Shown: positions 6,089 through 19,397 of the stretch, one piece after another | How the letters are laid out: each line of letters begins with the position of its first letter | Position numbering within the stretch: the first letter of the stretch is position 1 | NCBI RefSeq assembly: GCF_003121485.1 | Contig: NZ_QAVX01000024.1 | Coordinates: 15,927 to 74,898, forward strand | Direction: 5' to 3' | DNA from: Dyella sp. C11 | GTDB taxonomy: Bacteria > Pseudomonadota > Gammaproteobacteria > Xanthomonadales > Rhodanobacteraceae | DNA length: 58,972 nt | Translations under genes and position numbers: made by a program | Notes under the pieces: model-generated | Seen by the model: only the letters and a program-made list of their open reading frames with translations | Databases searched by the model: none | What the model was told of the DNA's origin: nothing

Positions 6089-6441
<353 letters not shown>

Positions 6442-6467
6442 ACTCAACGTCCACGGACGTTCCAAGA

Positions 6468-6512
6468 AGGCCGGAATCCCTAGCAATACCAAGGGTTCCG
6501 GCCTTTTTCTTT
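6468..6512 (+). terminator. Island-borne terminator downstream of ssrA
   Basis: An arm at 6468-6481 (AGGCCGGAATCCCT) pairs with 6492-6504 with a single unpaired base, and is followed by TTTTT-C-TTT. It sits within the island just past attL and so supplies transcription termination for ssrA after integration has separated the gene from its native terminator. Confidence 0.85.
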
Positions 6513-6546
6513 GTCCAGCAATGTCCCAGAAGATTTCTTGAAATCC

Positions 6547-6605
6547 GGGGGCAAGTGGGGGCAAGATCGGGGGCAACACGGACGTCACCTTTTACAGTTG
6601 CCCCC
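6547..6605. promoter_or_regulatory. Cluster of GGGGGCAA repeats (candidate integrase arm sites, left)
   Basis: GGGGGCAA occurs at 6547-6554, 6557-6564 and 6569-6576 in direct orientation. An inverted copy, TTGCCCCC, at 6598-6605 ends immediately before the integrase ATG at 6606. Two more direct copies lie at the other end of the island (19301-19308 and 19313-19320). Short repeats near both ends, with 10-12-bp spacing, are what arm-type integrase sites look like. The copy abutting the start codon suggests autorepression. Function is inferred. Confidence 0.6.
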
Positions 6606-7802
6606 ATGCGCCTAACGAACGTAGCAATCAGTAAAGCCAAGCCCACTGGCAAGACCCAACGCCTATCCGATGGCGGCGGCATGTATCTAGAAATTGCCCC
6701 AAGTGGCGGGAAGTGGTGGCGACTGAAGTACCGCTATGGCGGCAAAGAAAAACGTATCTCCCTTGGCACCTATCCGGACACCAGCCTCGCGGAGGCTCGC
6801 GAGAAACGCGATGTTGCGCGGAAACTGCTCGCGTCCGGTGTCGATCCAGCGGAGCAGCGAAAGGCCACCAAAGCGGCCGGCATAGAACGCTCTGCCAATA
6901 GCTTTGAAGTTGTGGCACGCGAATGGCACGCCAAGCAATCAACCACATGGGTGGAGCAGCATGCCAGTCGAATCATGCTTCGTTTGGAAAATGACGTATT
7001 TCCGTGGCTAGGTAACCGCCCAGTTGCAGAGATGAGTGCTAAGGAATTTCTCGCCACAGTAAATCGCATTGAAGCCCGCGGAGCTATCGAATCCGCACAT
7101 CGAGTACTTCAAAATTGCGGGCAAGTGATGCGCTACGCCATTGCTACCGGCCGGGCAGAACACAATCCCGTCGACAATCTGCGAGGCGCTCTTTCCCCCG
7201 TAAAGCCCAAAAACCTCGCAGCAATTACTGATCCTTCGGCAATTGGCGGCCTGTTACGTGCCATTGATGCTTATCAGGGCACCTTCATTACAAAGTGCGC
7301 GCTGAGGTTAGCGCCGCTGGTGTTCGTTCGCCCGGGTGAACTAAGGCATGCTGAGTGGCCTGAGTTCAATTTGGAGACCGGGGAGTGGAACATTCCCTCT
7401 GAGAAAATGAAGATGCGCTTACCGCATCTAGTCCCACTCGCCCCTCAGGCTGTGGAAATTTTGCGCGAGCTTCAGCCACTCACCGGTACCGGTCGGTACC
7501 TATTTCCTAGCGCACGTAGCCCAAAGCGCCCGATGAGCAACAATGCCGTACTCTCCGCCCTCCGCAGAATGGGATTTGCTAAGGAAGAGATGAGTGGGCA
7601 TGGCTTTCGGGCGATGGCTCGCACGGTCTTGGACGAAGTTCTCGGCTTCCGCCCAGACTATATCGAACATCAGCTAGCACACACGGTCAAAGACCCCAAT
7701 GGCAGAGCCTACAACCGCACTGCTCACCTAAGTGAACGACGCAGAATGATGGCAGCTTGGGCAGATCATCTTGATCACCTACGTCTGCTACGCGCTGAGT
7801 AA
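6606..7802 (+). CDS. int: P4-type tyrosine integrase
   Basis: A 398-residue site-specific recombinase. An N-terminal DUF4102-like arm-binding domain (LSDGGGMYLEIAPSGGKWWRLKYRYGGKEKRISLGTYP region) leads into a core-binding domain and a catalytic domain. The active-site set is visible as Arg in VRPGELRHAEW, His-x-x-Arg in GHGFRAMART, His in HQLAH and the nucleophile Tyr in GRAYNRTAHLSERR. The start MRLTNVAISK is chosen because it matches family N-termini and lies directly after an inverted GGGGGCAA site; the open frame extends 17 codons upstream. It lies beside attL in ssrA and should catalyse island integration and, with an excisionase such as the AlpA-like protein, excision. Confidence 0.95.
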   Translation: MRLTNVAISKAKPTGKTQRLSDGGGMYLEIAPSGGKWWRLKYRYGGKEKRISLGTYPDTSLAEAREKRDVARKLLASGVDPAEQRKATKAAGIERSANSFEVVAREWHAKQSTTWVEQHASRIMLRLENDVFPWLGNRPVAEMSAKEFLATVNRIEARGAIESAHRVLQNCGQVMRYAIATGRAEHNPVDNLRGALSPVKPKNLAAITDPSAIGGLLRAIDAYQGTFITKCALRLAPLVFVRPGELRHAEWPEFNLETGEWNIPSEKMKMRLPHLVPLAPQAVEILRELQPLTGTGRYLFPSARSPKRPMSNNAVLSALRRMGFAKEEMSGHGFRAMARTVLDEVLGFRPDYIEHQLAHTVKDPNGRAYNRTAHLSERRRMMAAWADHLDHLRLLRAE

Positions 7803-7873
7803 GCAACGTTGGAGTTTCCGAAGATCCGAGGTCCGGTTAGAGCCACACGGAAAATGCCATAGAGGATGGAACC

Positions 7874-9388
7874 TTGAGCACCAAGAAACGCAATCAAAAA
7901 GAACAAGATCGACGGATTCTTGGGATCTACAACCCCAAAGATGGACCTACAGCAGTGGGAGAACTGCGGCTAGAGGGCTCCAACACTTTGCTCAAGGTAC
8001 ATGCTGACTTCCCATTAGACTCTTTCGCACAAGCCGCCAACATCACTGGGACCTCCTTTACCGGCAAGCAGATAACACTAATCGACTGTTTCAGCCCCGG
8101 TGTAGGCCATACGCACTTTCAGGGGAAACCGACTAAGTATCACGCAGATATCTTTCCTCACTATGTTGCCATTGGTCACGGCCATATCGAGCCAAACGAT
8201 CGTTACGTCAAGGCCATCCATTTCACGACCAATGACCTGACACATCTTTTCTACGACTTCGACGCCTTCAGCAACTTGATTGATGCGAAAGCGGTGATTG
8301 AAGAGGTGTTGAAAGAACGCCGAAAGATGAGGCCTGTCGAAACAGGCGAACACCCGCAGATAGCTTATTTCACCGGAAAGACGCAGATTGTCGAGACCGA
8401 AACTACTATCGGCAAGGTATCTGTTCATCATCGGCCAACCCATAACTTAGGCGGCCCTGCTGGCGTTTACATTAAAAACAGAATGGTCGTCACCATTGAG
8501 CCCGATGAACCCATCGCCTTTGATGACGCCATAGACAGGATGTACGTAGTTGCTGCATTTCTGTCGGTGGCGGCAGGTCGCAGGCAGGGCATAAAACACG
8601 TCCAAATTGCTACTCTCGATCACGACAACGGAGTACCTCGAACACTTCAGGTACACCCGAGCTATCGTTGGAAAGCAAGCAACAAGATCGAGCTCTTTAA
8701 GCCTCATCCCGGCGATTTACCGCTGGACCCTATCCAACATAGCGTTGAATTCGAAACAGTCTTTTGTAACTGGATAGCGCGACATAAAGGCTGGAAGGTT
8801 GCGCGCTCCAGATATATCGATTGCCTACAAAAATCTAATGAATACGACGGCGGAAGGCTTGTTGCCGCCGCGAATATGTTCGATATATTGCCAGTGGAGG
8901 CGACCCCGGCCCCGTCAACGCTGACAGGTGACTTGGCCAAGACTAGAGACGAGTGTCGCGCCCTATTTCGCAAGCTCCCAGCTGGGATCGATCGAAACAG
9001 CGCCCTTGATGCGCTTGGCAGACTCGGAAAACCGTCTCTTCCCAAAAAGGTGGCCTATCGAGTATCGATCGTCGAATCGAGACTCGGCGCAATCTTCCCT
9101 GACATCCAAATTCCGGCAGCCGTTGCAGTTAAGTGTCGGAATTATCTCGTACATGGAAGCGCTGGAGATATTGACTACTCAAGAGTGGAACCACTTCTTC
9201 CGTTTCTTACAGACACGCTAGAGTTCGTCTTTGCCGCATCTGATTTCATTGAAAGTGGATGGAACACTCAACGATGGGCGTCATCTTCATATGGATGGGG
9301 CCATAGCTTCACGCGGTATCGCGCTGAGTATTCAGTAGCGCTGGCCAAGCTTCGAGGCGTTCTGCTAGACGACACTCCTAGCTCCTAA
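7874..9388 (+). CDS. ApeA-like HEPN-domain protein (predicted anti-phage RNase)
   Basis: A 504-residue protein with a TTG start preceded by GAGGA at 7862-7866. The N-terminal half resembles the ApeA N-terminal domain: ILGIYNP at 15-21, the beta-rich GELRLEG segment and ITGTSFTGKQITLIDCF at about 57-73. The C-terminal ~150 residues resemble a HEPN domain with the catalytic-type Arg-x4-His motif RNYLVHG (Arg422, His427). ApeA proteins are single-gene abortive-infection defence factors, thought to be RNases of the HEPN class. The identification rests on motif pattern, not alignment, and this copy may be a diverged subtype. It is tail-to-tail with the SIR2-STAND unit, in a region of lower GC. Confidence 0.75.
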   Translation: MSTKKRNQKEQDRRILGIYNPKDGPTAVGELRLEGSNTLLKVHADFPLDSFAQAANITGTSFTGKQITLIDCFSPGVGHTHFQGKPTKYHADIFPHYVAIGHGHIEPNDRYVKAIHFTTNDLTHLFYDFDAFSNLIDAKAVIEEVLKERRKMRPVETGEHPQIAYFTGKTQIVETETTIGKVSVHHRPTHNLGGPAGVYIKNRMVVTIEPDEPIAFDDAIDRMYVVAAFLSVAAGRRQGIKHVQIATLDHDNGVPRTLQVHPSYRWKASNKIELFKPHPGDLPLDPIQHSVEFETVFCNWIARHKGWKVARSRYIDCLQKSNEYDGGRLVAAANMFDILPVEATPAPSTLTGDLAKTRDECRALFRKLPAGIDRNSALDALGRLGKPSLPKKVAYRVSIVESRLGAIFPDIQIPAAVAVKCRNYLVHGSAGDIDYSRVEPLLPFLTDTLEFVFAASDFIESGWNTQRWASSSYGWGHSFTRYRAEYSVALAKLRGVLLDDTPSS

Positions 9389-9477
9389 GGCACACATTAC
9401 GGTGCGCCTAATGTTGCGACACTAGTACGAACAATATTGTGTGCTGCCACGATGAGACGGATCGTGGCGTAAGCGAC

Positions 9478-9957
9478 CTACAGCGATTTGGCGGACCGAT
9501 ACGAATAACTAGAAGGCTCTAAGCGAAAAAGCGTGGACGAGATATCCAAGAAGGCCGTGTCGTTACGTTCGTTTCCGATGCTCTCCCTTATCCGCTGACA
9601 TAGCCGAGTAAAGGCAAGAATCTCCTCTTCCTTCTCCAGAGTCCCGCCAAGCCGCCAGAAATCTACCAAAGCTTCAACCACATACACATCAGCGCACATA
9701 CAAATTCGCACTTTCGCATCGTTCAACACGGCAAGATCGCTTATCAGATCCGAGGTACTGCCCATTCTGCGCGCTGCAACAAGTTGGGACGCAGCCGAGA
9801 TGAAGTCAGCATAGGCCTTCAGCCGAAAGCCATCCAAAGAATCTTTTCGGCTACGTCGTTGGGCGAGAACGTGCCCAAGTACGACACCAACGGCGGCTCC
9901 TAGAGCCCCACTTAGCAGAGACAAAACAGCAACGGAAATCGTTGGCATGGCGAACAC
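9478..9957 (-). CDS. Small membrane-anchored protein of unknown function, SIR2-STAND partner
   Basis: An N-terminal transmembrane segment (residues ~5-30, VAVLSLLSGALGAAVGVVLG) is followed by a basic stop-transfer patch (AQRRSRKDS) and a ~125-residue helical cytoplasmic domain containing conserved-looking Trp/Arg/Glu positions. No family is recognised. The frame opens with GTG at 9957; an ATG three codons in (9948) is an equally good start. It begins 20 nt downstream of the giant SIR2-STAND gene on the same strand, so the two are probably co-transcribed and may act together at the membrane. The domain arrangement (one helix plus a soluble tail) recalls membrane effectors or regulators of defence operons; this is inference. 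Confidence 0.7.
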   Translation of the reverse strand: MFAMPTISVAVLSLLSGALGAAVGVVLGHVLAQRRSRKDSLDGFRLKAYADFISAASQLVAARRMGSTSDLISDLAVLNDAKVRICMCADVYVVEALVDFWRLGGTLEKEEEILAFTRLCQRIRESIGNERNDTAFLDISSTLFRLEPSSYSYRSAKSL

Positions 9958-9977
9958 GATGAAGTTAGAGGTTCGGG

Positions 9978-12900
9978 CTAGCTAAGAACCGTCAAATTAC
10001 GAGCCGCGGGACCAAAGAATGAGAACCCTAGGGTGACCGAAACACGATCTCCAATGCTAGGCAACTCCTCCTCATCCCCGAGCGATCTGTTGTCGAAATA
10101 GCAGTGAATGTGATTGTGATCGAGCTCTATGAAGCCATAAGAGCCAAATCGCTTCACCACAGTTCCGTTGAAGATTCGTGGAGTTGTCCGATCCCTCAAC
10201 ACCTCTTCCTTGACAGCACTCTTCGCAGCGAAGGGCACGGGAGCAGCCTTTAGTCCGTCATAGAGAACTTTCGCTTCAGAAATCCTGCCAGCCAAACTCA
10301 ACTGCCGAGCACACAATAGTTGTGCCCTATAGTTCTTATCTCCCTTGGCGAAAGACCGCTGATAGTAGCTCAGCAAGAAATCAGGGCGTTCGGCATCAAT
10401 CGAAGGTTCGATAAGCCTCGATATCTGCGCAAAGTCGAAATTGAGGTCTTGGCTACCGGGGTTATATTCGAGTGCCTGCCGCAAGACCTCCCTAGCCTCT
10501 TCAAGCTTGCCCCTTGCCCTTAGGACAATTGCATAGCGACGAGCGATGAGCTGGCTTCTTTTGTTGCCTTCAAATGCTCGATGAAGAGCACGCTCTGCTC
10601 GCTCGTCGTTTTCCAAAAGGCGCGCAAGCGTCGCCTCTTCCGTAAGCAGATGTGAGTCCCCGGGAAACCTCTTTAGTCCATTTCGAATTGTCTCTTCGGC
10701 CGACTTGATCGCATCACTGACTGCATCTGCCGAAAGCTGATCTTCCACCTCTGAATCCATCGCATCAGAAAGCGCTTGGATGTGCGCTTTTGCAATGGTG
10801 TGGTAAGCGTAAGAGCCATTTGATGCGGCCAAAAGCGTTTGAGCTTTTGTAACCGCCTCATTGCGCCATGCCGCACGCTCGATGGGATCGGTAGATATTC
10901 GAGCACGCGTAAGTGCTAGCTCCGCGATTGAGTGCCGGATAGTTCGATCTGTCGGCGCCAATTCCGCAGCTTCCAACAGGGCATCTTCGGCTAGCGCGAG
11001 GCCCTCGATATCACTGGCGACCCTCATCAGATATATGCCCTTCTGATGAAGGATGTAATGCTCCTCACCCAGCGCAGACAATGCGAGATCGTATAGCGCA
11101 ACACCTCGGTGCGATTCGGTGAGAAGCTCAGCCAGCCGACTTCCTCGCAACAAGTCGCCGATAATTCTCCGATCATACGAGTACGTAGGATTGAGGCGCC
11201 CAATCAACTTGGCCAAGTTGTCCAAACGTTCGTCTTCGGTCTTAAATACCTGACCGTAGAGTATTTCCGCGATGTAGGGGTGCCTTGAACGATAGATCCA
11301 ATCGCCGTTACGTGAATCGACCTCCAGCGAAACTACCTGTTCCAGCGGCCGAAAGAACCGCTCATGGAACTGCTCAAAGCTAATGCCGTGAACGCGCGAA
11401 ATGAGACCCGCACGCACCGGCGAACCGAACCTATGCAGCGCACAGATGTCCGCATACAAGACCTGAGCTTCCCTCGGAACTATCTTGCTGTACTCGTCGA
11501 AGATGACGTCCCGGAAGTGACCATTCCTAGTGGCCTCGTGCAGCGCGACAAGGAGTTGCCGCCCATAGACCTCTTCAAGTTGCTTGAGCTGTTGGTCATG
11601 CGGAAGATGTTTAAGCTCCCCGAGACAGTCGTTCAACTCCAGCTGCACAAGAAGATCTTCCGTCTCCTTGTGCGACATGTACCGAAGCTCGTATTCAGCT
11701 GTGACGCTACTATCGAGATTCTGCGAACGAATGTTCCACTCGTTAAAGCGAGCCCCACCAATGATCACTATTGGCAGCTTGTCCTGCTTAGCTGCGCTCA
11801 GAAGTCCCGCAACCCCCTCGGAAACTTGGGTGATGTCGTCGATCACCAAGAACAAGGGTTCTTGCGCAAGAGTTACCAGCTCCTGCAAGGCCTCAATATT
11901 TATGTAGCCGGTACTCGGCACAAAGACAACGAGCTTATTGAGCCTGCGCGACGCATCCCAAGCCAATCGGCGCAACATGACGCTTTTGCCTGCCCCCGCG
12001 TGGGCCTTGAGGACAACAAGCCGCGGCCCGGTCAATTGTCCGGTCACTACAACCTGCTCTTGCAAAATGGCCTGAGTCAACGGGCGAGCGAAATCGAGCT
12101 CCTTCTCGATTGGATACCATCCTAGATCGAACCCGTTGAAGAACCTCTGCGGCGTCCCATCCGGAGACACTGTTTCTGCAGAAACATGCTCTGCACCTGT
12201 CTCCAGATAATTTCTGAGGAGCGAACTTTCTCTCCGGTGGCTTGCGATATAGGTCGTGAGCGAAGTGGGTTCTTCGCTCTTTGCCACCGCAAGTTTTCGC
12301 AATGCACCGGGAATGGAAGCATCCAGTTCGTCGATGAAAGCTTCGAACGTTGAGTCAATGAGCGTGAAACGGCGTTCCTGCCAGTACTGCCGTTCAACGT
12401 CGAGCACACCTTTTTTAACGATATAGTGCCGCGGCCGGGCGTCACCATCCTTAATAATTTCGTCTAGAAGAAGCCTCAAGTTGTAGTCGCGCAAGCTGTA
12501 GCCCGCAAAGATCAATGTCTTTACTTTGGCCCATTCGAGCAGCTGGCTAAATTGAGCGGCCCTTCCCTCTTTATGTCGAAGTATCCGTTCTGTGCTGTAA
12601 ACCATGCCCGGATTCAGCTGTTCAAACGCAGTGACACAGCCATGCAACTTCAAATAGAGGAGGTCTCCCTTCTCCATCGTGTCTATGAAGTCCGGCGTGT
12701 CTCTGACTAGCGGACGCAATCTCTGCAATCGATCCGGCTCTTGCTCGTATGCCCGCTCAACCACAAGGTCAAAATTGGTCGTCGCCATTCCTGCCCAATG
12801 GAAGGTAGGAATCTTTCTATGGAACCGTGCAGGCTGGAAAGGCGTTAGCGTGTCGTGGATAAAGCGCTGCAGCTCACGGCCACTTTTGGCCGTGGCGGCG

Positions 12901-13097
12901 TAGTCGCATATCTGCACGAAGTCGAGGTCAGTTACACCCGGACCGAGAAAGGATTCAGCAATAGCCTTCCCAAGCGCCTCTGTACCCGGGATGGTGTGAC
13001 CTTTTCCGTCCGATGCGCCCAACGACGCCCCTGCTCCGAGAAAAAGTACCGCTCTGCCACCTTTCACTTCTTCAATTAGATTCGCATCCAAGGGCAT
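9978..13097 (-). CDS. SIR2-STAND-TPR protein with C-terminal cold-shock domain (predicted anti-phage defence)
   Basis: A 1039-residue protein. Residues 1-260 look like a SIR2-type NAD-binding domain: FLGAGAS (19-25), TTNFD (106-110), LKLHG (149-153) and FAGYSLRDYNL (197-207). Residues ~340-560 form a STAND-type P-loop NTPase with Walker A AHAGAGKS (365-372) and Walker B LFLVIDDI (415-422). Residues ~670-950 are TPR-like helical repeats. The last ~65 residues (FNGTVVKRFGSYGFIELD and GDRVSVTLGF) look like a cold-shock/S1-type nucleic-acid-binding domain. SIR2-STAND proteins such as Avs5 and DSR-type proteins kill infected cells by depleting NAD+. The terminal cold-shock domain suggests a nucleic-acid ligand. 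It is followed at 20 nt by the membrane protein gene at 9957-9478. Confidence 0.85.
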   Translation of the reverse strand: MPLDANLIEEVKGGRAVLFLGAGASLGASDGKGHTIPGTEALGKAIAESFLGPGVTDLDFVQICDYAATAKSGRELQRFIHDTLTPFQPARFHRKIPTFHWAGMATTNFDLVVERAYEQEPDRLQRLRPLVRDTPDFIDTMEKGDLLYLKLHGCVTAFEQLNPGMVYSTERILRHKEGRAAQFSQLLEWAKVKTLIFAGYSLRDYNLRLLLDEIIKDGDARPRHYIVKKGVLDVERQYWQERRFTLIDSTFEAFIDELDASIPGALRKLAVAKSEEPTSLTTYIASHRRESSLLRNYLETGAEHVSAETVSPDGTPQRFFNGFDLGWYPIEKELDFARPLTQAILQEQVVVTGQLTGPRLVVLKAHAGAGKSVMLRRLAWDASRRLNKLVVFVPSTGYINIEALQELVTLAQEPLFLVIDDITQVSEGVAGLLSAAKQDKLPIVIIGGARFNEWNIRSQNLDSSVTAEYELRYMSHKETEDLLVQLELNDCLGELKHLPHDQQLKQLEEVYGRQLLVALHEATRNGHFRDVIFDEYSKIVPREAQVLYADICALHRFGSPVRAGLISRVHGISFEQFHERFFRPLEQVVSLEVDSRNGDWIYRSRHPYIAEILYGQVFKTEDERLDNLAKLIGRLNPTYSYDRRIIGDLLRGSRLAELLTESHRGVALYDLALSALGEEHYILHQKGIYLMRVASDIEGLALAEDALLEAAELAPTDRTIRHSIAELALTRARISTDPIERAAWRNEAVTKAQTLLAASNGSYAYHTIAKAHIQALSDAMDSEVEDQLSADAVSDAIKSAEETIRNGLKRFPGDSHLLTEEATLARLLENDERAERALHRAFEGNKRSQLIARRYAIVLRARGKLEEAREVLRQALEYNPGSQDLNFDFAQISRLIEPSIDAERPDFLLSYYQRSFAKGDKNYRAQLLCARQLSLAGRISEAKVLYDGLKAAPVPFAAKSAVKEEVLRDRTTPRIFNGTVVKRFGSYGFIELDHNHIHCYFDNRSLGDEEELPSIGDRVSVTLGFSFFGPAARNLTVLS

Positions 13098-13261
13098 AGG
13101 TCGTTACGGTCCCTGCATCGACTAAGGCAACCCGAGGATATGGGTTCCTTAACAAAGTCGCTAGGCATCCTTCTCTTTTTGTATACCTTCTGATCCACCC
13201 GAGAAGGCCTATCAAATCTCTTATCAAAATGATATTCTCACATCATCTAGGAGATATGATA

Positions 13262-13825
13262 ATGAGCGAAATCGTAGGGTACGCCCGCGTCAGTAGCGTC
13301 GGCCAATCACTCGACGTCCAGCTGGATAAGCTGAAGCGGGCCGGCTGCACACGGATTTATGCCGAAAAACGGTCAGGCAAGCAGGCTGATAGCCGTCCAG
13401 AACTACAGGCATGCCTCCAGTTTCTCCGGGAAGGGGACACCGTCGTCATTTCACGCTTAGACCGCATGGCACGTTCCGTCTTGGACTTGGCGAAGATCGC
13501 GGACCTGCTGAAGAAAAAAGGCGTGGCCCTTCGGGTGGTGGATCAGGCTATTGATACAGGTACGCCTGAGGGAAAGCTAATGTTCTCCCTGCTCGCAGGA
13601 TTTGCTGAATTCGAAAATGACATCCGAGCCGAGCGTCAGGCCGATGGGATTGCGAAGGCAAGGGAAAAGGGTGTGGCCTTCGGTCGGAAGCGTGCCCTGA
13701 CCCAAGAGCAATGCCAGCGGATCAGGACGCTGCGGGAAGAAGAGAAGTTCTCTGTTCCCCAGCTGGCAGAACGGTTCAACGTTGGACCCGCAACAATTTA
13801 TAGGGCTTTGCAATCCACCGAATGA
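13262..13825 (+). CDS. Serine recombinase (resolvase/invertase family)
   Basis: A 187-residue small serine recombinase. The N-terminal catalytic domain starts IVGYARVSSVGQSLDVQ, with the nucleophilic Ser in ARVSS, then SRLDRMARSVLDL and the EFENDIRAERQADGIAKA helix. A C-terminal Hin-type helix-turn-helix follows (FSVPQLAERFNVGPATIYRAL). I chose the ATG at 13262 because AGGAG at 13249-13253 is 8 nt upstream; an in-frame ATG at 13256 is too close. It probably resolves or inverts DNA at a nearby site; a plausible site is the AT-rich stretch with TATCA repeats at 13206-13262, though no clear res or inversion pair was found. Confidence 0.92.
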   Translation: MSEIVGYARVSSVGQSLDVQLDKLKRAGCTRIYAEKRSGKQADSRPELQACLQFLREGDTVVISRLDRMARSVLDLAKIADLLKKKGVALRVVDQAIDTGTPEGKLMFSLLAGFAEFENDIRAERQADGIAKAREKGVAFGRKRALTQEQCQRIRTLREEEKFSVPQLAERFNVGPATIYRALQSTE

Positions 13826-13954
13826 CGAGTCGCCCAAAGGAGGCTTGGATCGAACTCGGTCGGGTACGCCACCGGGTTCGGCTGTCTCGCCGATATGTTG
13901 TTATTTGCGAGAGCACTTAAGATGGGCCCAACATTATTCGGAACAGAGGGCCCG

Positions 13955-14950
13955 ATGAAAAAGCTTGCACTCTTCAACAACAAAGGTGGCGTCGGAAAGA
14001 CCACCCTTACAGTCAACTTGGCGGACGCTTTCGAAGAGTTAGGGAAAACGGGCCTTCTCGTCGACGCCGACCCACAATGTAATCTGACGTCGTTCTACAT
14101 TAACGAGGATGAACTGGAGAAGCTCCTCGGCGACTCAGATAACGAGGACTCTGCAGACACTCTGTGGTCAGCGATTAAGCCAGTTGTGATCGGCAGAGGC
14201 GGTACAAAAGAGCCACCGATATGGACCGTTCCGAAGCGAAACATTCATCTCCTTCCCGGTGACGTCCTCTTGTCGGAGTACGAAGAGACGCTGCCCGCTG
14301 CTTGGACTGACAGCTTCGCACGTAAGACTCGCGGGTATGACGTTACTACTGCACTGGCGAAAGTCGTCGGGGAAGCAGCCGAAAGCGTTGGGGCGGATAT
14401 TGTTATGTACGATGTCGGACCAAATGTCGGCGCACTCAACCGCGTCGTCCTTATGGACTGCGACAATTTCATTACACCGGTTGCGGCAGATCTATTCTCT
14501 CTTCGGGCCCTCTCAACCGTTGGTCGATCCATTGCGAAGTGGGCAACCGATTGGGCAACGATTCGCGGAATGGCGAGCGATGAAGACAAGGAGGCGCTGT
14601 TCGCGGGTGTGCCCCACTATCTTGGGTATATAACGTCGGCCTACAAGATTGGACGAGGGGCGAAGGCTAGTGACGCTCATACCGGGTGGGAGAAGGATAT
14701 CGGCCCCCGAGTCCGCTACCGCGTAATTGATCAACTCCGCAAAGCCAACCCAGCCCTTGCGACCCCCGGACAGAGCAAGCTAGGCGGGATTCGCAATTAC
14801 CATAGCCTTGCTCCTGACGCACAGCGATACGGGGTCGCCATTGGTAAGCTTAGAGGGCTGATCAACTCCGGCCAAAACGCGCACATCGAGGACGCCCGTC
14901 AGGAATTTCTAGACCTCGCCAGCGAAATCATCCAAAGAATAGGTGACTAA
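13955..14950 (+). CDS. Orphan ParA-family ATPase
   Basis: A 331-residue MinD/ParA-type ATPase. It has the deviant Walker A KGGVGKTT (10-17), the A' motif LVDADPQCN and the Walker B region IVMYDVGPNVG. The start MKKLALFNNKGG is set by the family N-terminus; AGAGGG precedes it at 7 nt. The sequence contains inserts (ENDELEKLLG-type acidic stretch and the 230-280 region) that typical plasmid ParAs lack. No ParB or parS was seen within the island, so partitioning of an excised form is uncertain. A small ORF follows at 15174. It may act in positioning, in element stability, or as a regulatory ATPase. Confidence 0.88.
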   Translation: MKKLALFNNKGGVGKTTLTVNLADAFEELGKTGLLVDADPQCNLTSFYINEDELEKLLGDSDNEDSADTLWSAIKPVVIGRGGTKEPPIWTVPKRNIHLLPGDVLLSEYEETLPAAWTDSFARKTRGYDVTTALAKVVGEAAESVGADIVMYDVGPNVGALNRVVLMDCDNFITPVAADLFSLRALSTVGRSIAKWATDWATIRGMASDEDKEALFAGVPHYLGYITSAYKIGRGAKASDAHTGWEKDIGPRVRYRVIDQLRKANPALATPGQSKLGGIRNYHSLAPDAQRYGVAIGKLRGLINSGQNAHIEDARQEFLDLASEIIQRIGD

Positions 14951-15173
14951 CACCATGGCGTGGGGCGGGATGCCATCCTGAGTTCTGGAGGCATCTTGGC
15001 TTTCTAGCGGCTCGTGCGCCTTGAAGCTCTGGCTTCCATCCGCATCATTAGCGGTTCGGCTCGTCTGGGGCCAATATCTTTCCTTAAATACGCGCTTCCT
15101 TGCGACAGCTGCGGAGCAGCTGTAAGCGAGCAAGTCAGCGCTGCTCTAGCCACACTCATCTTTAGGGGGGTCT

Positions 15174-15443
15174 ATGATTACAATCGATTCAAAAGAATTC
15201 CGCGACTTGATCGGACAGGCAGTAATCCAGCGAGATCTTGGGTCCTACGAAGTGGCGGCGATGGTGCTGGAGCAGACGATGCCAAGCTTCGATCAGCCAG
15301 CAAAAGAAATCGCACTATTGCAGCTCATCTACATTTACGATGCCGCTGGAGATACGACCAAGCGCAAAGCGTCTGCCGAAAAGCTGGCGAAGTACGATTC
15401 GGAAATTCCTTCTGTAAAGAAGGTGCTTGGTACGTACATGTAG
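15174..15443 (+). CDS. Small helical protein of unknown function
   Basis: An 89-residue acidic-to-neutral protein with a strong ribosome site (AGGGGGG at 15163-15169) before the ATG. The sequence (RDLIGQAVIQRDLGSYEVAAMVLEQ and LLQLIYIYDAAGDTTKRKASAEKL) reads as two or three amphipathic helices with TPR-like spacing. No family is recognised. It lies 223 bp downstream of the orphan ParA on the same strand and could be its partner; the intervening gap argues against a tight operon. Confidence 0.55.
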   Translation: MITIDSKEFRDLIGQAVIQRDLGSYEVAAMVLEQTMPSFDQPAKEIALLQLIYIYDAAGDTTKRKASAEKLAKYDSEIPSVKKVLGTYM

Positions 15444-15822
15444 CCTGCGACAAGCCGCAGGATCACGTACAAGTTCAGATGTCTGCTTTCTAAAGCGAAG
15501 CGGACATCCCTCCCCCCGAAAATGTAAATTTCACTGCCTGTTCTCGAACGGAAGAATTGAGGCAGATGCAAATGCAAATGCAAATGCAGAATGGAGCTTC
15601 GCGAAGTTTGCTCGTTGGATTAGCCGTAGCTGCTGCGCATCTGCTTCGGAAAAAAAGCAACTCTCGAAATTTCCAAACTTGTTTTCATCTCAGGCCGACG
15701 GACTAGTCCAACGTGACCGACTAAATTCGTCACTTAGAGATGCTTTCTAGTGATAGTTGTCAGCCATCATATGGTGGCCCCGGTGGAAGCAGGGGGCCAT
15801 ATCTCCCTCCCTTGATGGCTAC
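15444..15822. other. Gene-free stretch in island with short tandem repeat
   Basis: No convincing coding sequence is seen. An open frame of about 107 codons at 15427-15750 has no ribosome site and a repeat-derived Asn-Ala stretch, and looks spurious. At 15566-15588 there are nearly four copies of ATGCAA. A weak hairpin (15445-15462) follows the small gene without a T tract. Confidence 0.6.
15566..15588. repeat. ATGCAA short tandem repeat
   Basis: Nearly four copies of ATGCAA in the gene-free part of the island between the small helical gene and the lipoprotein gene. A possible slippage site; no gene uses it. Confidence 0.85.
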
Positions 15823-16308
15823 TCACCTCGATTGCTTAGGCTTGACCCAACAGTTGAATTCACCATTGGCTGCAACAGTCATCGCCGCAACATATCCCTG
15901 ATACTCAACCGAACCATACGGGTTGTTCGGAAGTGTCTTGCGGAACTGATCGAACATAGTAGTAACGAGGGCATCCGCCGTTTTAGCTGGAATGCCTAGC
16001 GCGGCCTGAACCGTCTGAAGGCATAAAGCGATGGAGCTCGATCGATCCATCGTTGCGACCTCGAAGGTATTGTTCTCCGCATACACAGCCGCGTTTGGCA
16101 GGCGGGCTTCATTTCTGCCTAGACGGTTCTTCCGAAATTCATCGATATGGTAGGAGGCGTCAGTCTGGCTGTTCCATCGCTCTTGGAAGGTCGTTGCCGT
16201 GTTTGCCCAACCAGTATTGCCGCTTGCTGATGCTCCGCAACCAACTAGGACAGCCAAGGCTGTGGCTGCTAAGCCGGACAGCAACGCCTTAAATGCGTTA
16301 TCGGACAT
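15823..16308 (-). CDS. Hypothetical lipoprotein
   Basis: A 161-residue protein with a signal peptide ending in the lipobox LVGC (Cys24), so it is predicted to be lipidated and exported. A Gly-Ser-rich linker is followed by a ~120-residue domain with EERWNSQTDASYHIDEFRK-like helical and VAAMTVAANGEFNCWVKP beta-strand segments. No family is recognised. A purine-rich ribosome site (GGGGGAAGAA) precedes the ATG. It is divergent from the XRE regulator, and two palindromes in the gap probably control it. Its role could be surface exclusion or another accessory function; this is speculative. Confidence 0.7.
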   Translation of the reverse strand: MSDNAFKALLSGLAATALAVLVGCGASASGNTGWANTATTFQERWNSQTDASYHIDEFRKNRLGRNEARLPNAAVYAENNTFEVATMDRSSSIALCLQTVQAALGIPAKTADALVTTMFDQFRKTLPNNPYGSVEYQGYVAAMTVAANGEFNCWVKPKQSR

Positions 16309-16335
16309 TTCTTCCCCCTATCGCTCATCCAAAAG

Positions 16336-16377
16336 CTAAGAAAAACTTAGTCTTGGAGAATGCTAAGTATTCCTTAG
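16336..16377. promoter_or_regulatory. Twin palindromic operators CTAAG-N5-CTTAG
   Basis: Two identical half-site palindromes, CTAAG-N5-CTTAG, lie at 16336-16350 and 16363-16377, spaced 27 bp start to start, between the divergent lipoprotein and XRE genes. Their placement, repetition and symmetry fit binding sites of the adjacent XRE-family protein. The pairing with that protein is inferred. Confidence 0.7.
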
Positions 16378-16435
16378 TATTCGGTCAACCTCCTCACCTA
16401 GCACGCTGGCATCCGTTTAGCCCACGGATCGCCAA

Positions 16436-16792
16436 GTGCCCCACTCAAGGGACAATCCAACAAGCCTTTCAACAGCTGGGATAGTAGCCCGTAGGCTAAG
16501 GCAAGCTAGGGAAGCTGTCGGCTTGTCTCAGCGAGACCTTGGAGTGAAAGCTGGTCTAGATCCCTCAGTAGCCTCTCCTCGCATTAATCAGTACGAGCGT
16601 GACAGGCATATCCCCAATCCTGCAGTGCTTGGGCAGCTTGGCGCAGTACTGGACGTTCCAGTGGCTTACTTCTTTGCGGTGGACGACGATCTAGCGCAGG
16701 CGATCATGGCGATCCATCGGGCAGCTCCCAGTCGCCGCAAACATTGGCTGCAAGCGCTGCTTGCTGAGACCAGCCCAACCCGGAAGGCATAA
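16436..16792 (+). CDS. XRE-family transcriptional regulator
   Basis: A ~118-residue protein with a Cro/C1-type helix-turn-helix: RLRQAREAVGLSQRDLGVKAGLDPSVASPRINQYERDRHIPNP. A short C-terminal helical segment follows (DDLAQAIMAIHRAAPSRRKHW). The only upstream start in this frame is a GTG at 16436; the ribosome site is weak, so the start is uncertain. It is divergent from the lipoprotein gene and probably binds the CTAAG-N5-CTTAG pair to control both genes. Confidence 0.85.
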   Translation: MPHSRDNPTSLSTAGIVARRLRQAREAVGLSQRDLGVKAGLDPSVASPRINQYERDRHIPNPAVLGQLGAVLDVPVAYFFAVDDDLAQAIMAIHRAAPSRRKHWLQALLAETSPTRKA

Positions 16793-17159
16793 AGTTGATG
16801 CGGACTGTCCGTAAGTCTTGCTCACGTCATGTCGGCTAAGTGCCGGCTTATCATCGCGGCCGGGCAATCTGCCTCCCCCGCAGACTTACCCTAGCTACCA
16901 ACAACGAGACCTCGCGGACGCGTTGCTGCGTCTTGCGATGTGGAGACTACACGAGGGACGAGGCACTGACACCGGCACGTATATGTGCTCGCAAAGCATC
17001 CGAAGTCAGCTCTGAACTGGACCATATGGGCCAGTTCCACACGATGCTTCGCACCACAAAAGCACAACCTTCTAATTTTTCGAATCGCTGACAGGTTGAA
17101 AGCCTCCACCTCGATTTAGATGAAGGCCGCTTTCGCGTGCCATTTTGGCTCCAGACCGA
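16793..17159. other. Gene-free stretch in island
   Basis: About 370 bp between the XRE gene and the unknown gene at 17160-17927 hold only short frames without ribosome sites or recognisable motifs. No RNA gene or strong repeat is seen. Confidence 0.55.
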
Positions 17160-17927
17160 TCAGCGAATCGTCAGATTTTCTTCTATGGCCGGCACCCCGA
17201 TGTCTGCAGGTCGAACGAAAACGATGTCGTGGACATTCGGACCAACAAAGCGAGTACTCATCCCTATTGGTGTGCCCAGTGCGGTCTGACCTAGTTGATA
17301 GCTCAACCAAGACCCAGATGCCTCAGCAATGTTGATCGCACCCACTTCACTGCCTGCGTCCACAAAACAAAGCGCGTCGAGAGCTTCTTTGATTCGGCCT
17401 TCGAATAACTTGGCCGCAAACAACTCTGCTTTTAACGAACCGTCCGCATGGAACAACAGGTTGTCCTCGATCCACATGTGAATGAGGTGCCACCCTGCTG
17501 AGAATGTCCTGCTACCTGAAGGATCAACAACAGCAAGGTGCCCCTGAAATGATCCCGGGCAATTATCAAAGTGGCCGTGTTCTTGGTAGTGCAGTGCAGC
17601 GACCAAGTAGCTAAGTGCCGCCTCTAATTTCTCAAGGGATTTGGCCGAGTACTCAATATCAATGCGGATCAAATACGGTCCGTCACGATATACCTCCCCC
17701 TTCAAGCTTTTTAACCCACCGCACACATGCGCCGGGAGTTCAAGAACGGTAATTTGCTTACTTGCTTCAAGGTGTGTTGCTTGGTTTATCATTTTGATGT
17801 GATTCCTATATAGATTTTGGAGCAAAGCATCTGCTGTCCGCCGTTGCTCAAGCCGGCGAATGCGAAGATGTTCGGGAGTTGCCAATTCATCCAGAGCGGC
17901 ATGAAGGCTATGAAATTCAAAGGTCAA
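17160..17927 (-). CDS. Protein of unknown function
   Basis: A 255-residue soluble-looking protein. The N-terminal ~60 residues (LDELATPEHLRIRRLEQRRTADALLQNLYRNH) look helical and basic, the middle contains YLIRIDIEYSAKSLEKLEAALSYLVAALHYQEH, and the C-terminus has LSYQLGQTALGTPIGMSTRF. No motif or family is recognised and there is no signal peptide. It begins 40 nt after the stop of the HUH Rep-like gene on the same strand, so it is probably in one transcript with it and may serve the replication or stability of the element. Confidence 0.65.
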   Translation of the reverse strand: MTFEFHSLHAALDELATPEHLRIRRLEQRRTADALLQNLYRNHIKMINQATHLEASKQITVLELPAHVCGGLKSLKGEVYRDGPYLIRIDIEYSAKSLEKLEAALSYLVAALHYQEHGHFDNCPGSFQGHLAVVDPSGSRTFSAGWHLIHMWIEDNLLFHADGSLKAELFAAKLFEGRIKEALDALCFVDAGSEVGAINIAEASGSWLSYQLGQTALGTPIGMSTRFVGPNVHDIVFVRPADIGVPAIEENLTIR

Positions 17928-17967
17928 GGCTGCTGCCAGAGCCCTGTCTGTTCGTTCTTAAAAGACG

Positions 17968-18567
17968 TCAGATTCCGTCTTTGCCTAGGTAGAACACTCG
18001 GTCATCCCAACGCCAATTCTTCAAGCCGACTTCCTTCGCAACATACTTGCAAAAGGCAGGGCTCTCGCCGGACCCAATAGCGATGACATTGACACCATGC
18101 TTGCTGACCAACTGCCTACGACGATTGGGTGCTGTCAGCTGCTTGGCTGCATCGGTAAAAGCAAGGAATAGCTTGGCCGCGGCCGCCAATGCATCCCTAG
18201 GAAGGCTAGGATGATCATGGACTAGGAGATGGTAGTGACAACTGCCGAACTCACGACTAGACCTATCAAAGATCTGAGCCTTCTCCATGACTGCTATACC
18301 TGTCATGGGATTGACACCCTTTTTGATCCAGCGCCTGCCAAGAACCTTCTTCATTGTGCGGCGCCATACCTTAGCTATCGCCTGCTGGCCTTCCTCGTCC
18401 GAAATCTCGTACTGAAAAGTCAGGGTTAGGAAGAATCCGTATGGCCCGCAGCCGTCCAAGACCTTCCTTATCTGTACGTAGTCATCCCATCTTGGGTGAT
18501 GACCAAACTTGTTTGCCTCTTCCTCATAGATATGAGTTGGAATGTTGTAATCAACTATTTTTTTCAT
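17968..18567 (-). CDS. HUH-type replication protein-like (YagK/YfjJ or inovirus Gp2-like)
   Basis: A 199-residue protein with three motifs of rolling-circle initiators: motif 1 FFLTLTF (~45-51), motif 2 SCHYHLLVHDHP (His-x-His) and motif 3 KYVAKEVG with a candidate nucleophilic Tyr. This fits HUH endonucleases; the small size and the context with AlpA and a P4-type integrase resemble the YagK/YfjJ proteins of cryptic E. coli elements. It could nick the excised island for replication. The family assignment is by motif only. The gene is followed by the unknown gene at 17927 and preceded by AlpA. Confidence 0.7.
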   Translation of the reverse strand: MKKIVDYNIPTHIYEEEANKFGHHPRWDDYVQIRKVLDGCGPYGFFLTLTFQYEISDEEGQQAIAKVWRRTMKKVLGRRWIKKGVNPMTGIAVMEKAQIFDRSSREFGSCHYHLLVHDHPSLPRDALAAAAKLFLAFTDAAKQLTAPNRRRQLVSKHGVNVIAIGSGESPAFCKYVAKEVGLKNWRWDDRVFYLGKDGI

Positions 18568-18736
18568 ATTCGTACCGCTCCTTATATGTTTTCTTTAGGT
18601 AATAAAACTCCATCTGATCGGCCCTCGGGCCTACCAGTTCTCGTTCAAAGTTGTGGGAGGTTGCGGCCTAGTTTCACCATATGGCCGCGAGACGCTCGGT
18701 CTCTATTTAGAGACTTCTAGGCTGTGTTGTATCGGG

Positions 18737-19054
18737 TCAACTAGAAGTTTTGCTCTTAGCAGAACTGGCTACTCGCCCAGCCATCCACTCGCGGACCTTA
18801 GATTGAGGCCACGCAACGCTGCGTGTGCTCAATTTTATGCTCTGAGGGAAGCGCCCCTCGCCCATGAGCTTATAGACCTGTGTGCGGGATATGCCGCACG
18901 AATTGCGCACCTCGGGGAGCTTTAGAAAGCGCTCATCGTTAATTGTTGTATCCACCGTCACCTCGTTGTTTGTTGTGGTGCGCACATGATCTGCTGCAAC
19001 CGCCTCCACGTAAACTATGAAGTTTCGCCATATCAGTGACTTAGAGAAATTCAC
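18737..19054 (-). CDS. AlpA-family regulator (excisionase-type)
   Basis: The last ~65 residues form a MerR/excisionase-type helix-turn-helix: RFLKLPEVRNSCGISRTQVYKLMGEGRFPQSIKLSTRSVAWPQSKVREWM. This is typical of AlpA proteins, which activate integrase expression or act as excisionases in P4-type elements. The frame opens with GTG at 19054, but the first ~40 residues are not conserved; internal GTG codons at 18985 or 18961 may be the true start. It is the last gene before the right attachment site. Confidence 0.85.
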   Translation of the reverse strand: MNFSKSLIWRNFIVYVEAVAADHVRTTTNNEVTVDTTINDERFLKLPEVRNSCGISRTQVYKLMGEGRFPQSIKLSTRSVAWPQSKVREWMAGRVASSAKSKTSS

Positions 19055-19300
19055 TAGATCTCCCAGTCAAACCAAGCGAAAAAGCCGCGCCACTCGAGGT
19101 AAATGGACCGTGAGCGCATCCGAGGCTCGCTGAGAACGTCCTGCTTAGTCTCAGACGCGTTCAAGGACCGTGGCGACGGGTGAAAACTTTGTGATGAAGT
19201 TTCACTGAATGATGTGCGCTCCTGACGGGTTTGAACCCTTTCTACCAAGCCCTAATCGGCCACCAAGTCGCTGAGCATTACAACTTGCGTCCAACAGGTT

Positions 19301-19320
19301 GGGGGCAACTTTGGGGGCAA
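19301..19320. promoter_or_regulatory. GGGGGCAA repeats near attR (candidate integrase arm sites, right)
   Basis: Two direct copies of GGGGGCAA lie at 19301-19308 and 19313-19320, about 65-80 bp inside attR. They match the three direct and one inverted copies beside the integrase gene (6547-6605). Being present at both ends makes them candidates for the integrase or its accessory factors. Confidence 0.6.
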
Positions 19321-19383
19321 CAGTTGGCACCCCTCAACAACCAAGCCTTATTTGGTATGACACACACGGCTTAAGTTGATAGA

Positions 19384-19397
19384 CGCCACCTCCACCA
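19384..19397 (+). other. attR: 14-bp core direct repeat
   Basis: Exact copy of the last 14 nt of ssrA (CGCCACCTCCACCA). Immediately after it comes the displaced native ssrA terminator, which proves that this is the right-hand junction. Confidence 0.9.

What the first reader, a model, noticed from the sequence alone, without database searches (positions are those of the whole stretch)
9478..13097. SIR2-STAND-TPR protein ending in a cold-shock domain, with a membrane partner: candidate defence system
The 1039-residue product has a SIR2 NAD-binding N-terminus, a STAND P-loop core, TPR-like repeats and, unusually, a cold-shock/S1-like domain at the extreme C-terminus. Known SIR2-STAND defence proteins (Avs5 type) sense phage proteins; a terminal nucleic-acid-binding module would suggest an RNA or DNA trigger. 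A 20-nt gap leads to a 159-residue single-helix membrane protein of no recognised family. The pair lies in a mobile island beside an ApeA-like gene. The domain order is read from sequence; the joint function and trigger are inferred.
Basis: partly seen in the sequence, partly recalled or inferred. Interest (0 to 1): 0.85.

Follow-up and report, generated by a model that had tools for sequence, protein, structure and literature searches.

The report
SIR2-STAND immune protein with cold-shock tail
A single large bacterial protein combines an NAD-destroying type of enzyme, an immune-type molecular switch, a repeat sensor and a cold-shock (RNA/DNA-binding type) tail; it is a widespread, untested candidate anti-phage protein whose layout matches the core of the human antiviral protein SAMD9.

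The parts
9978..13097 (-). SIR2-STAND-TPR-CSD protein, 1039 aa, ATG start
   Evidence: Pfam nSTAND_NTPase5 and SIR2_2; 54-row full-length family alignment; AF2 model mean pLDDT 88.0, pTM 0.60
12297..13097 (-). SIR2 NADase-type domain, about residues 1-267; N108 in TTNFD and H152 in KLHG
11127..12185 (-). STAND NTPase with winged helix, about residues 305-657; Walker A GAGKS 368-372; conserved H606
10218..11120 (-). TPR-type helical solenoid, residues ~660-960
   Evidence: helical pairs in the AF2 model; TPR_19 in 43 of 46 scanned rows
9981..10205 (-). C-terminal cold-shock domain (OB fold), residues 965-1039; aromatic face Y987, F989, Y1000
9478..9957 (-). 159-aa single-helix membrane protein; next gene downstream, judged NOT part of the system
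   Evidence: no homologue beside any relative locus held; homologues in 3 other genomes of 369 of the class
7874..9388 (+). ApeA-like HEPN protein, separate defence gene in the same island
   Evidence: Pfam ApeA_NTD1 1.3e-20, HEPN_Apea 7.3e-9
6442..19397 (.). genomic island inserted at the 3' end of ssrA (tmRNA 6089-6441); 14-nt repeat at 6428-6441 and 19384-19397; tyrosine integrase 6555-7802
   Evidence: bases from 19398 on lie at the tmRNA 3' end in 6 of 10 fetched loci from the genus, own included in the ten

Best explanation
A single-gene STAND immune effector that works like Avs5. At rest the TPR-CSD C-terminal half holds the NTPase switch closed. On infection a phage-derived ligand binds that half, ATP-bound NTPase modules oligomerise, the SIR2 domains come together and hydrolyse NAD+, and the cell stops supporting the phage (abortive infection). 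The cold-shock domain at the tip of the solenoid most likely adds recognition of single-stranded RNA/DNA or of a phage ribonucleoprotein. Shown here: predicted fold and order of the four domains, conservation of the NADase and Walker residues, family-wide presence of the CSD-like tail, presence on mobile elements, no conserved partner found. Inferred: NADase activity, oligomerisation, anti-phage function, the nature of the trigger.
Against: No activity data for this family. The window's own CSD has D1002 at the RNP2 histidine position and net charge -2, while 34 of 54 rows are positive, so nucleic-acid binding is not well secured in this very member. The known PaAvs5 trigger is a protein (PMC12931631 abstract). 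The PADLOC count is inflated by many models per protein, only the first 25 of 165 were shown, the control held defence-type hits too (AbiEii, QatD, GajA, DrmC), and it came from the window's order, not from the relatives' own genomes. Whole-model TM-scores are low (about 0.2-0.45 for these rows).
Confidence: 0.6

Rival explanations
1. Same NADase-STAND defence, but the trigger is a phage protein bound by the TPR solenoid, as in PaAvs5; the CSD is a cap, a protein-protein module or an autoinhibitory brake.
For: PaAvs5 senses a phage protein (abstract) and a section heading states that its C-terminal repeat domain is essential for activation (section not read); cold-shock folds can sit in protein complexes (the SXL-UNR complex is the top match); the window CSD is net acidic.
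Against: RNP-type aromatics all kept in 47 of 54 rows, and the CSD-like tail stays at the same place in all 54 although its overall identity is low.
Confidence: 0.3
2. Two-gene system: the 159-aa membrane protein is the sensor, anchor or second effector of the SIR2-STAND-CSD protein.
For: Same strand, 20-nt gap.
Against: No homologue in any relative locus held; homologues in G320, G416, G513, none of which has the big gene at 1e-30; of 61 relative loci with a next ORF downstream, 28 have it on the same strand and 7 on the same strand within 60 nt, by a simple ORF caller.
Confidence: 0.04
3. Not anti-phage: an NAD-linked stress or mobile-element maintenance regulator that uses the CSD to bind host mRNA.
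For: Carried on plasmids and islands with partition, toxin-antitoxin and recombinase genes.
Against: The characterised SIR2-STAND protein Avs5 is antiviral (PMC12931631); restriction genes sit directly upstream in one plasmid and neighbours match many defence models.
Confidence: 0.08

Closest known systems
Avs5 (AVAST type 5; EfAvs5 PDB 9jap, AVAST5 filament PDB 9nc9)
   Different: NTPase falls in nSTAND_NTPase5, not nSTAND3; an added CSD from residue 965, beyond the part aligned to EfAvs5; PADLOC Avs5 model matched by 2 of 46 rows and not by this protein.
SAMD9 / SAMD9L family (human antiviral factors; PDB 9zjr, 9zjs)
   Same: Same core order SIR2-like, STAND P-loop, TPR, C-terminal OB most similar to cold-shock proteins (PMC5445408); second-best Foldseek match, 2.0e-19; weak CSD profile match near the end of a SAMD9 chain (E 0.25).
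   Different: No SAM or AlbA/tRNase domain; canonical GxGK[S/T] Walker A in 54/54 rows instead of GG[T/S]; SIR2 catalytic positions kept, so the effector is probably NADase, not tRNase.
ThsA, DSR2, KomC (SIR2 NADases)
   Same: SIR2 fold and motifs.
   Different: ThsA is SIR2-SLOG (PMC11204291 abstract in the listing) and DSR2 has a long helical sensor (recalled); this STAND plus CSD layout is not theirs.
CoCoNuT Type IV restriction systems with cold-shock domains
   Same: CSD-like OB folds fused to defence NTPases and read as RNA-binding modules (PMC11090510, passages).
   Different: McrB GTPase/McrC nuclease systems, CSD at the N-terminus in Type I; SIR2 not mentioned in the passages seen.

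Membership tests
Avs5 | N-terminal SIR2-like effector (PF13289) | tested here: met
   SIR2_2 1.2e-17; 46 of 46 rows
Avs5 | nSTAND3 NTPase (PF20720), as given in PMC12931631 | tested here: not met
   Not among the window protein's matches at E<=1; instead nSTAND_NTPase5 6.5e-24; nSTAND3 weakly in 9 of 46 rows, best 2.2e-6
Avs5 | C-terminal helical repeat sensor | tested here: met
   AF2 model helices ~660-960; TPR_19 in 43 of 46 rows
Avs5 | NAD+ hydrolysis on sensing a phage protein | not testable with these tools
   Catalytic-position residues present; activity untested
SAMD9 | Core order SIR2-like, STAND P-loop, TPR, C-terminal cold-shock-like OB | tested here: met
   against PMC5445408
SAMD9 | Walker A with GG[T/S] in place of GK[T/S] | tested here: not met
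   GAGKS at 368-372; K in 54 of 54 rows
SAMD9 | AlbA_2 (tRNase) domain before SIR2 (said to be lost in some members) | tested here: not met
   SIR2 fold begins at the N-terminus; no such Pfam match
SAMD9 | Sequence homology across the core | tested here: inconclusive
   Foldseek E 2.0e-19 on the whole model, no ranges given; by sequence only E 0.25 over 28 residues in the CSD
Cold-shock domain (PF00313) | Sequence profile and OB barrel of the CSP type | tested here: met
Cold-shock domain (PF00313) | Binds single-stranded RNA/DNA through RNP1/RNP2 aromatics | not testable with these tools
   Aromatics at 987, 989, 1000 all kept in 47 of 54 rows; binding not measured

The most novel reading that the evidence does not exclude
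The family is a prokaryotic SAMD9-type sensor with all its enzymes intact: an NADase switched on by nucleic acid bound at the TPR-CSD end, and a plausible bacterial root of the animal SAMD9 core, in which the NADase and NTPase later decayed and an AlbA/tRNase effector took over.
Probability: 0.25. Interest if true: 0.88.

Novelty: new variant of a known kind. Interest (0 to 1): 0.62.

Why it matters
SAMD9 and SAMD9L are human antiviral factors; the functions of their bacterial kin are called harder to predict (PMC5445408, PMC13245274), and what their C-terminal half senses is, to my knowledge, open. A compact, single-gene bacterial family with the same core order, an intact NADase site and an intact NTPase can be put into a laboratory E. 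coli strain and asked directly what the C-terminal cold-shock domain senses. It also adds a STAND NADase clade that PADLOC 2.0.0 matched only through its SIR2 and TPR parts in this protein.

Tried and rejected
Two-gene system rejected; one search is a pattern scan that finds close relatives only, and one search scored only the two best candidates per genome, so rare misses are possible. Avs5 membership rejected on the NTPase family. The idea that the CSD is a chance reading or a recent fusion is rejected. SAMD9 membership left open: Walker A differs and sequence homology is unproven; I had no SAMD9 sequence to align and did not type one. The full-length profile against the PDB mostly returned SIR2 and TPR proteins (60 of 322 shown); the STAND region alone gave EfAvs5 as the only strong hit (60 of 144 shown). 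VIA on the whole model shows no SAMD9 row among its 50, which says nothing either way. The att search: two 16-nt places scored 14/16 (19382 and 43644), only the first with 14 contiguous matches; longer seeds gave nothing clear, and the repeat finder with a 20-nt minimum did not list it. PHROGs gave no match for six proteins of the island. No phage record matched the big protein. Of 61 genomes of own and close relatives searched with it, 9 matched, but the eight other than the own genome are weak part matches to SIR2 or TPR stretches. Literature: five searches aimed at this architecture or at cold-shock domains in defence listed no paper on this family; long lists were capped at 20 to 30 rows. 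Read: PMC12931631 outline, abstract, section 7 part 1 of 4 and passages; PMC5445408 parts 1-2 of 4; PMC13245274 and PMC11090510 passages. All other papers were seen as listings only. No bioRxiv library and few subscription papers are held.

Full report
WHAT IS THERE. Pfam places nSTAND_NTPase5 (PF25199) at 317-460 (6.5e-24) and SIR2_2 at 105-247 (1.2e-17), with TPR matches near 853-892 below the curated cut-offs. No library names the whole protein: NCBIfam gave nothing over its cut-offs, PHROGs nothing, and PADLOC's best was ThsA at 1.9e-11 through the SIR2 domain. Residue numbers count Met as 1; the model and alignment rows lack Met, so their ranges are one lower.

THE FAMILY. tblastn found 17 plasmid records, 14 covering at least 80% of the query, all below 60% identity. 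A scan of viral contigs gave 9 loci, 7 of them nearly full length. I aligned 53 of them with the window (A4, 54 rows), leaving out three near-copies. Because rows were chosen by length, cut and broken copies are not in the counts below. The nearest relative is 70% identical (L028, a gammaproteobacterial MAG); a 93% identical fragment (residues 1-223) lies near a contig end in a Rhodanobacter denitrificans MAG (L063). All 46 rows scanned (size limit; of 54) match nSTAND_NTPase5 and SIR2_2.

TREE. On the first 690-720 residues (SIR2 plus NTPase), 61 rows fall into 51 CSD-bearing rows and 10 rows of about 800 aa without a CSD-like tail (judged by eye from their C-terminal letters), split at 100/100 by a branch of 3.06. 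One row named short, L079, is a cut CSD-bearing copy. The CSD clade carries 11 phylum labels including two archaeal rows, one on a 3.8-kb MAG contig (L033) and one on a very long branch (L098); Pseudomonadota need 8 changes on the tree, which fits horizontal spread but does not prove it. So the CSD is an old, fixed part of a clade.

THE SUPPOSED PARTNER. tblastn of the 159-aa protein at E 0.01 found nothing in any relative locus held and nothing in plasmids; a pattern scan of viral contigs found no relative. Of 61 full-length big-gene loci 57 had at least 560 nt downstream. Among 147 family genomes only the own one has it. Among 369 class genomes 4 do: own, G320 (46%), G416 (28%), G513 (25%, one stop inside). 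The big gene at 1e-30 is in own, G507 (5-1035), G385 (5-886) and G234 (463-801) (same number of genomes and same listed handles, so I take it as the same draw). Overlap: the own genome alone. In G320 the homologue stands near a transposase-like ORF (family recalled). Genes downstream of relatives vary in strand, size and distance. It is a real small protein with one predicted membrane helix (read from the sequence), but not a conserved partner.

THE ISLAND. tmRNA lies at 6089-6441. Its last 14 bases recur exactly once in the window, at 19384-19397. A tyrosine integrase follows at 6555. G+C in 1-kb bins is 0.50-0.57 from 6 to 19 kb against 0.61 for the window. Of 20 genus genomes searched with the right flank, 13 matched somewhere (own included); of the ten loci fetched, six (L110-L113, L115, L116) have the bases from 19398 on at the 3' end of their own tmRNA, as their coordinates show, i.e. 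an empty site; the other four (L107 own, L108, L109, L114) show no tmRNA. The matching stretch is short (33-41 nt) and terminator-like. The island also carries ApeA, a resolvase, ParA, AlpA and a below-cut-off Rep match. Integrase homologues also lie in the flanks of L022-L025, L060, L074 and L079.

DEFENCE SURROUNDINGS. I scanned 129 neighbour ORFs from 42 relative loci with PADLOC at 1e-10: 165 models matched, and the 25 shown include type II and III methyltransferases, a restriction enzyme, ZorD, DpdE, DruM, PD-T4-6 and mad2. 129 of 131 ORFs called alike from 17 arbitrary stretches of genomes of the window's genus, family and order matched 15 models, among them AbiEii, QatD, GajA and DrmC. 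Models are redundant, so this shows a direction, not a rate; and the control is not from the relatives' own genomes.

MECHANISM. Read together, the best account is an Avs5-like, single-gene NADase switch with an extra cold-shock module at the sensor end. PaAvs5 senses an early phage protein and hydrolyses NAD+ (PMC12931631 abstract); Avs5 clades differ in the phages they restrict, an ssRNA phage among them (section 7 part 1). Defence systems with CSDs read as RNA binders exist (PMC11090510, passages). What the CSD does here is open: RNA/ssDNA sensor (favoured), protein module, or brake.

SAMD9. Mekhedov and colleagues describe the SAMD9 core as AlbA, variant SIR2, STAND P-loop with GG[T/S], TPR and a C-terminal OB most like cold-shock proteins, with bacterial members known (PMC5445408, parts 1-2 of 4). 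The present family has the same order from SIR2 onward, but a canonical Walker A and conserved SIR2 catalytic positions. The Avs5 paper already noted similarity of PaAvs5 to SAMD9; the CSD makes this family a closer architectural match than Avs5. Common descent of the whole core is not shown here.

Noticed in passing
window 6442-19397: 13-kb island in ssrA with integrase, ApeA-like gene, resolvase, ParA, AlpA and a below-cut-off replication-protein match; looks like an integrative mobilisable or satellite-type element.
   Followed up: partly
L092, L094, L095, L097, L099, L100, L102-L105: Sister group of about 800-aa SIR2-STAND proteins without the cold-shock tail, separated by a very long branch; no literature looked up.
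   Followed up: partly
L012, L013, L014, L015, L051, L059, L061, L062, L066: A serine recombinase similar to the window's 13229-13825 lies in the flanks of several relatives; possibly a shared mobile context.
   Followed up: no
L134 1462-1935: Homologue (46%) of the 159-aa membrane protein near an IS200-type transposase ORF (family recalled); a small membrane-protein family of unknown role.
   Followed up: partly
L098 6989-10204: A methanogen isolate (Methanogenium marinum) carries a very divergent member that still ends in a CSD-like tail.
   Followed up: no
window 15014-15493, 15823-16308, 17160-17927: Island ORFs without any Pfam match at 0.01.
   Followed up: no
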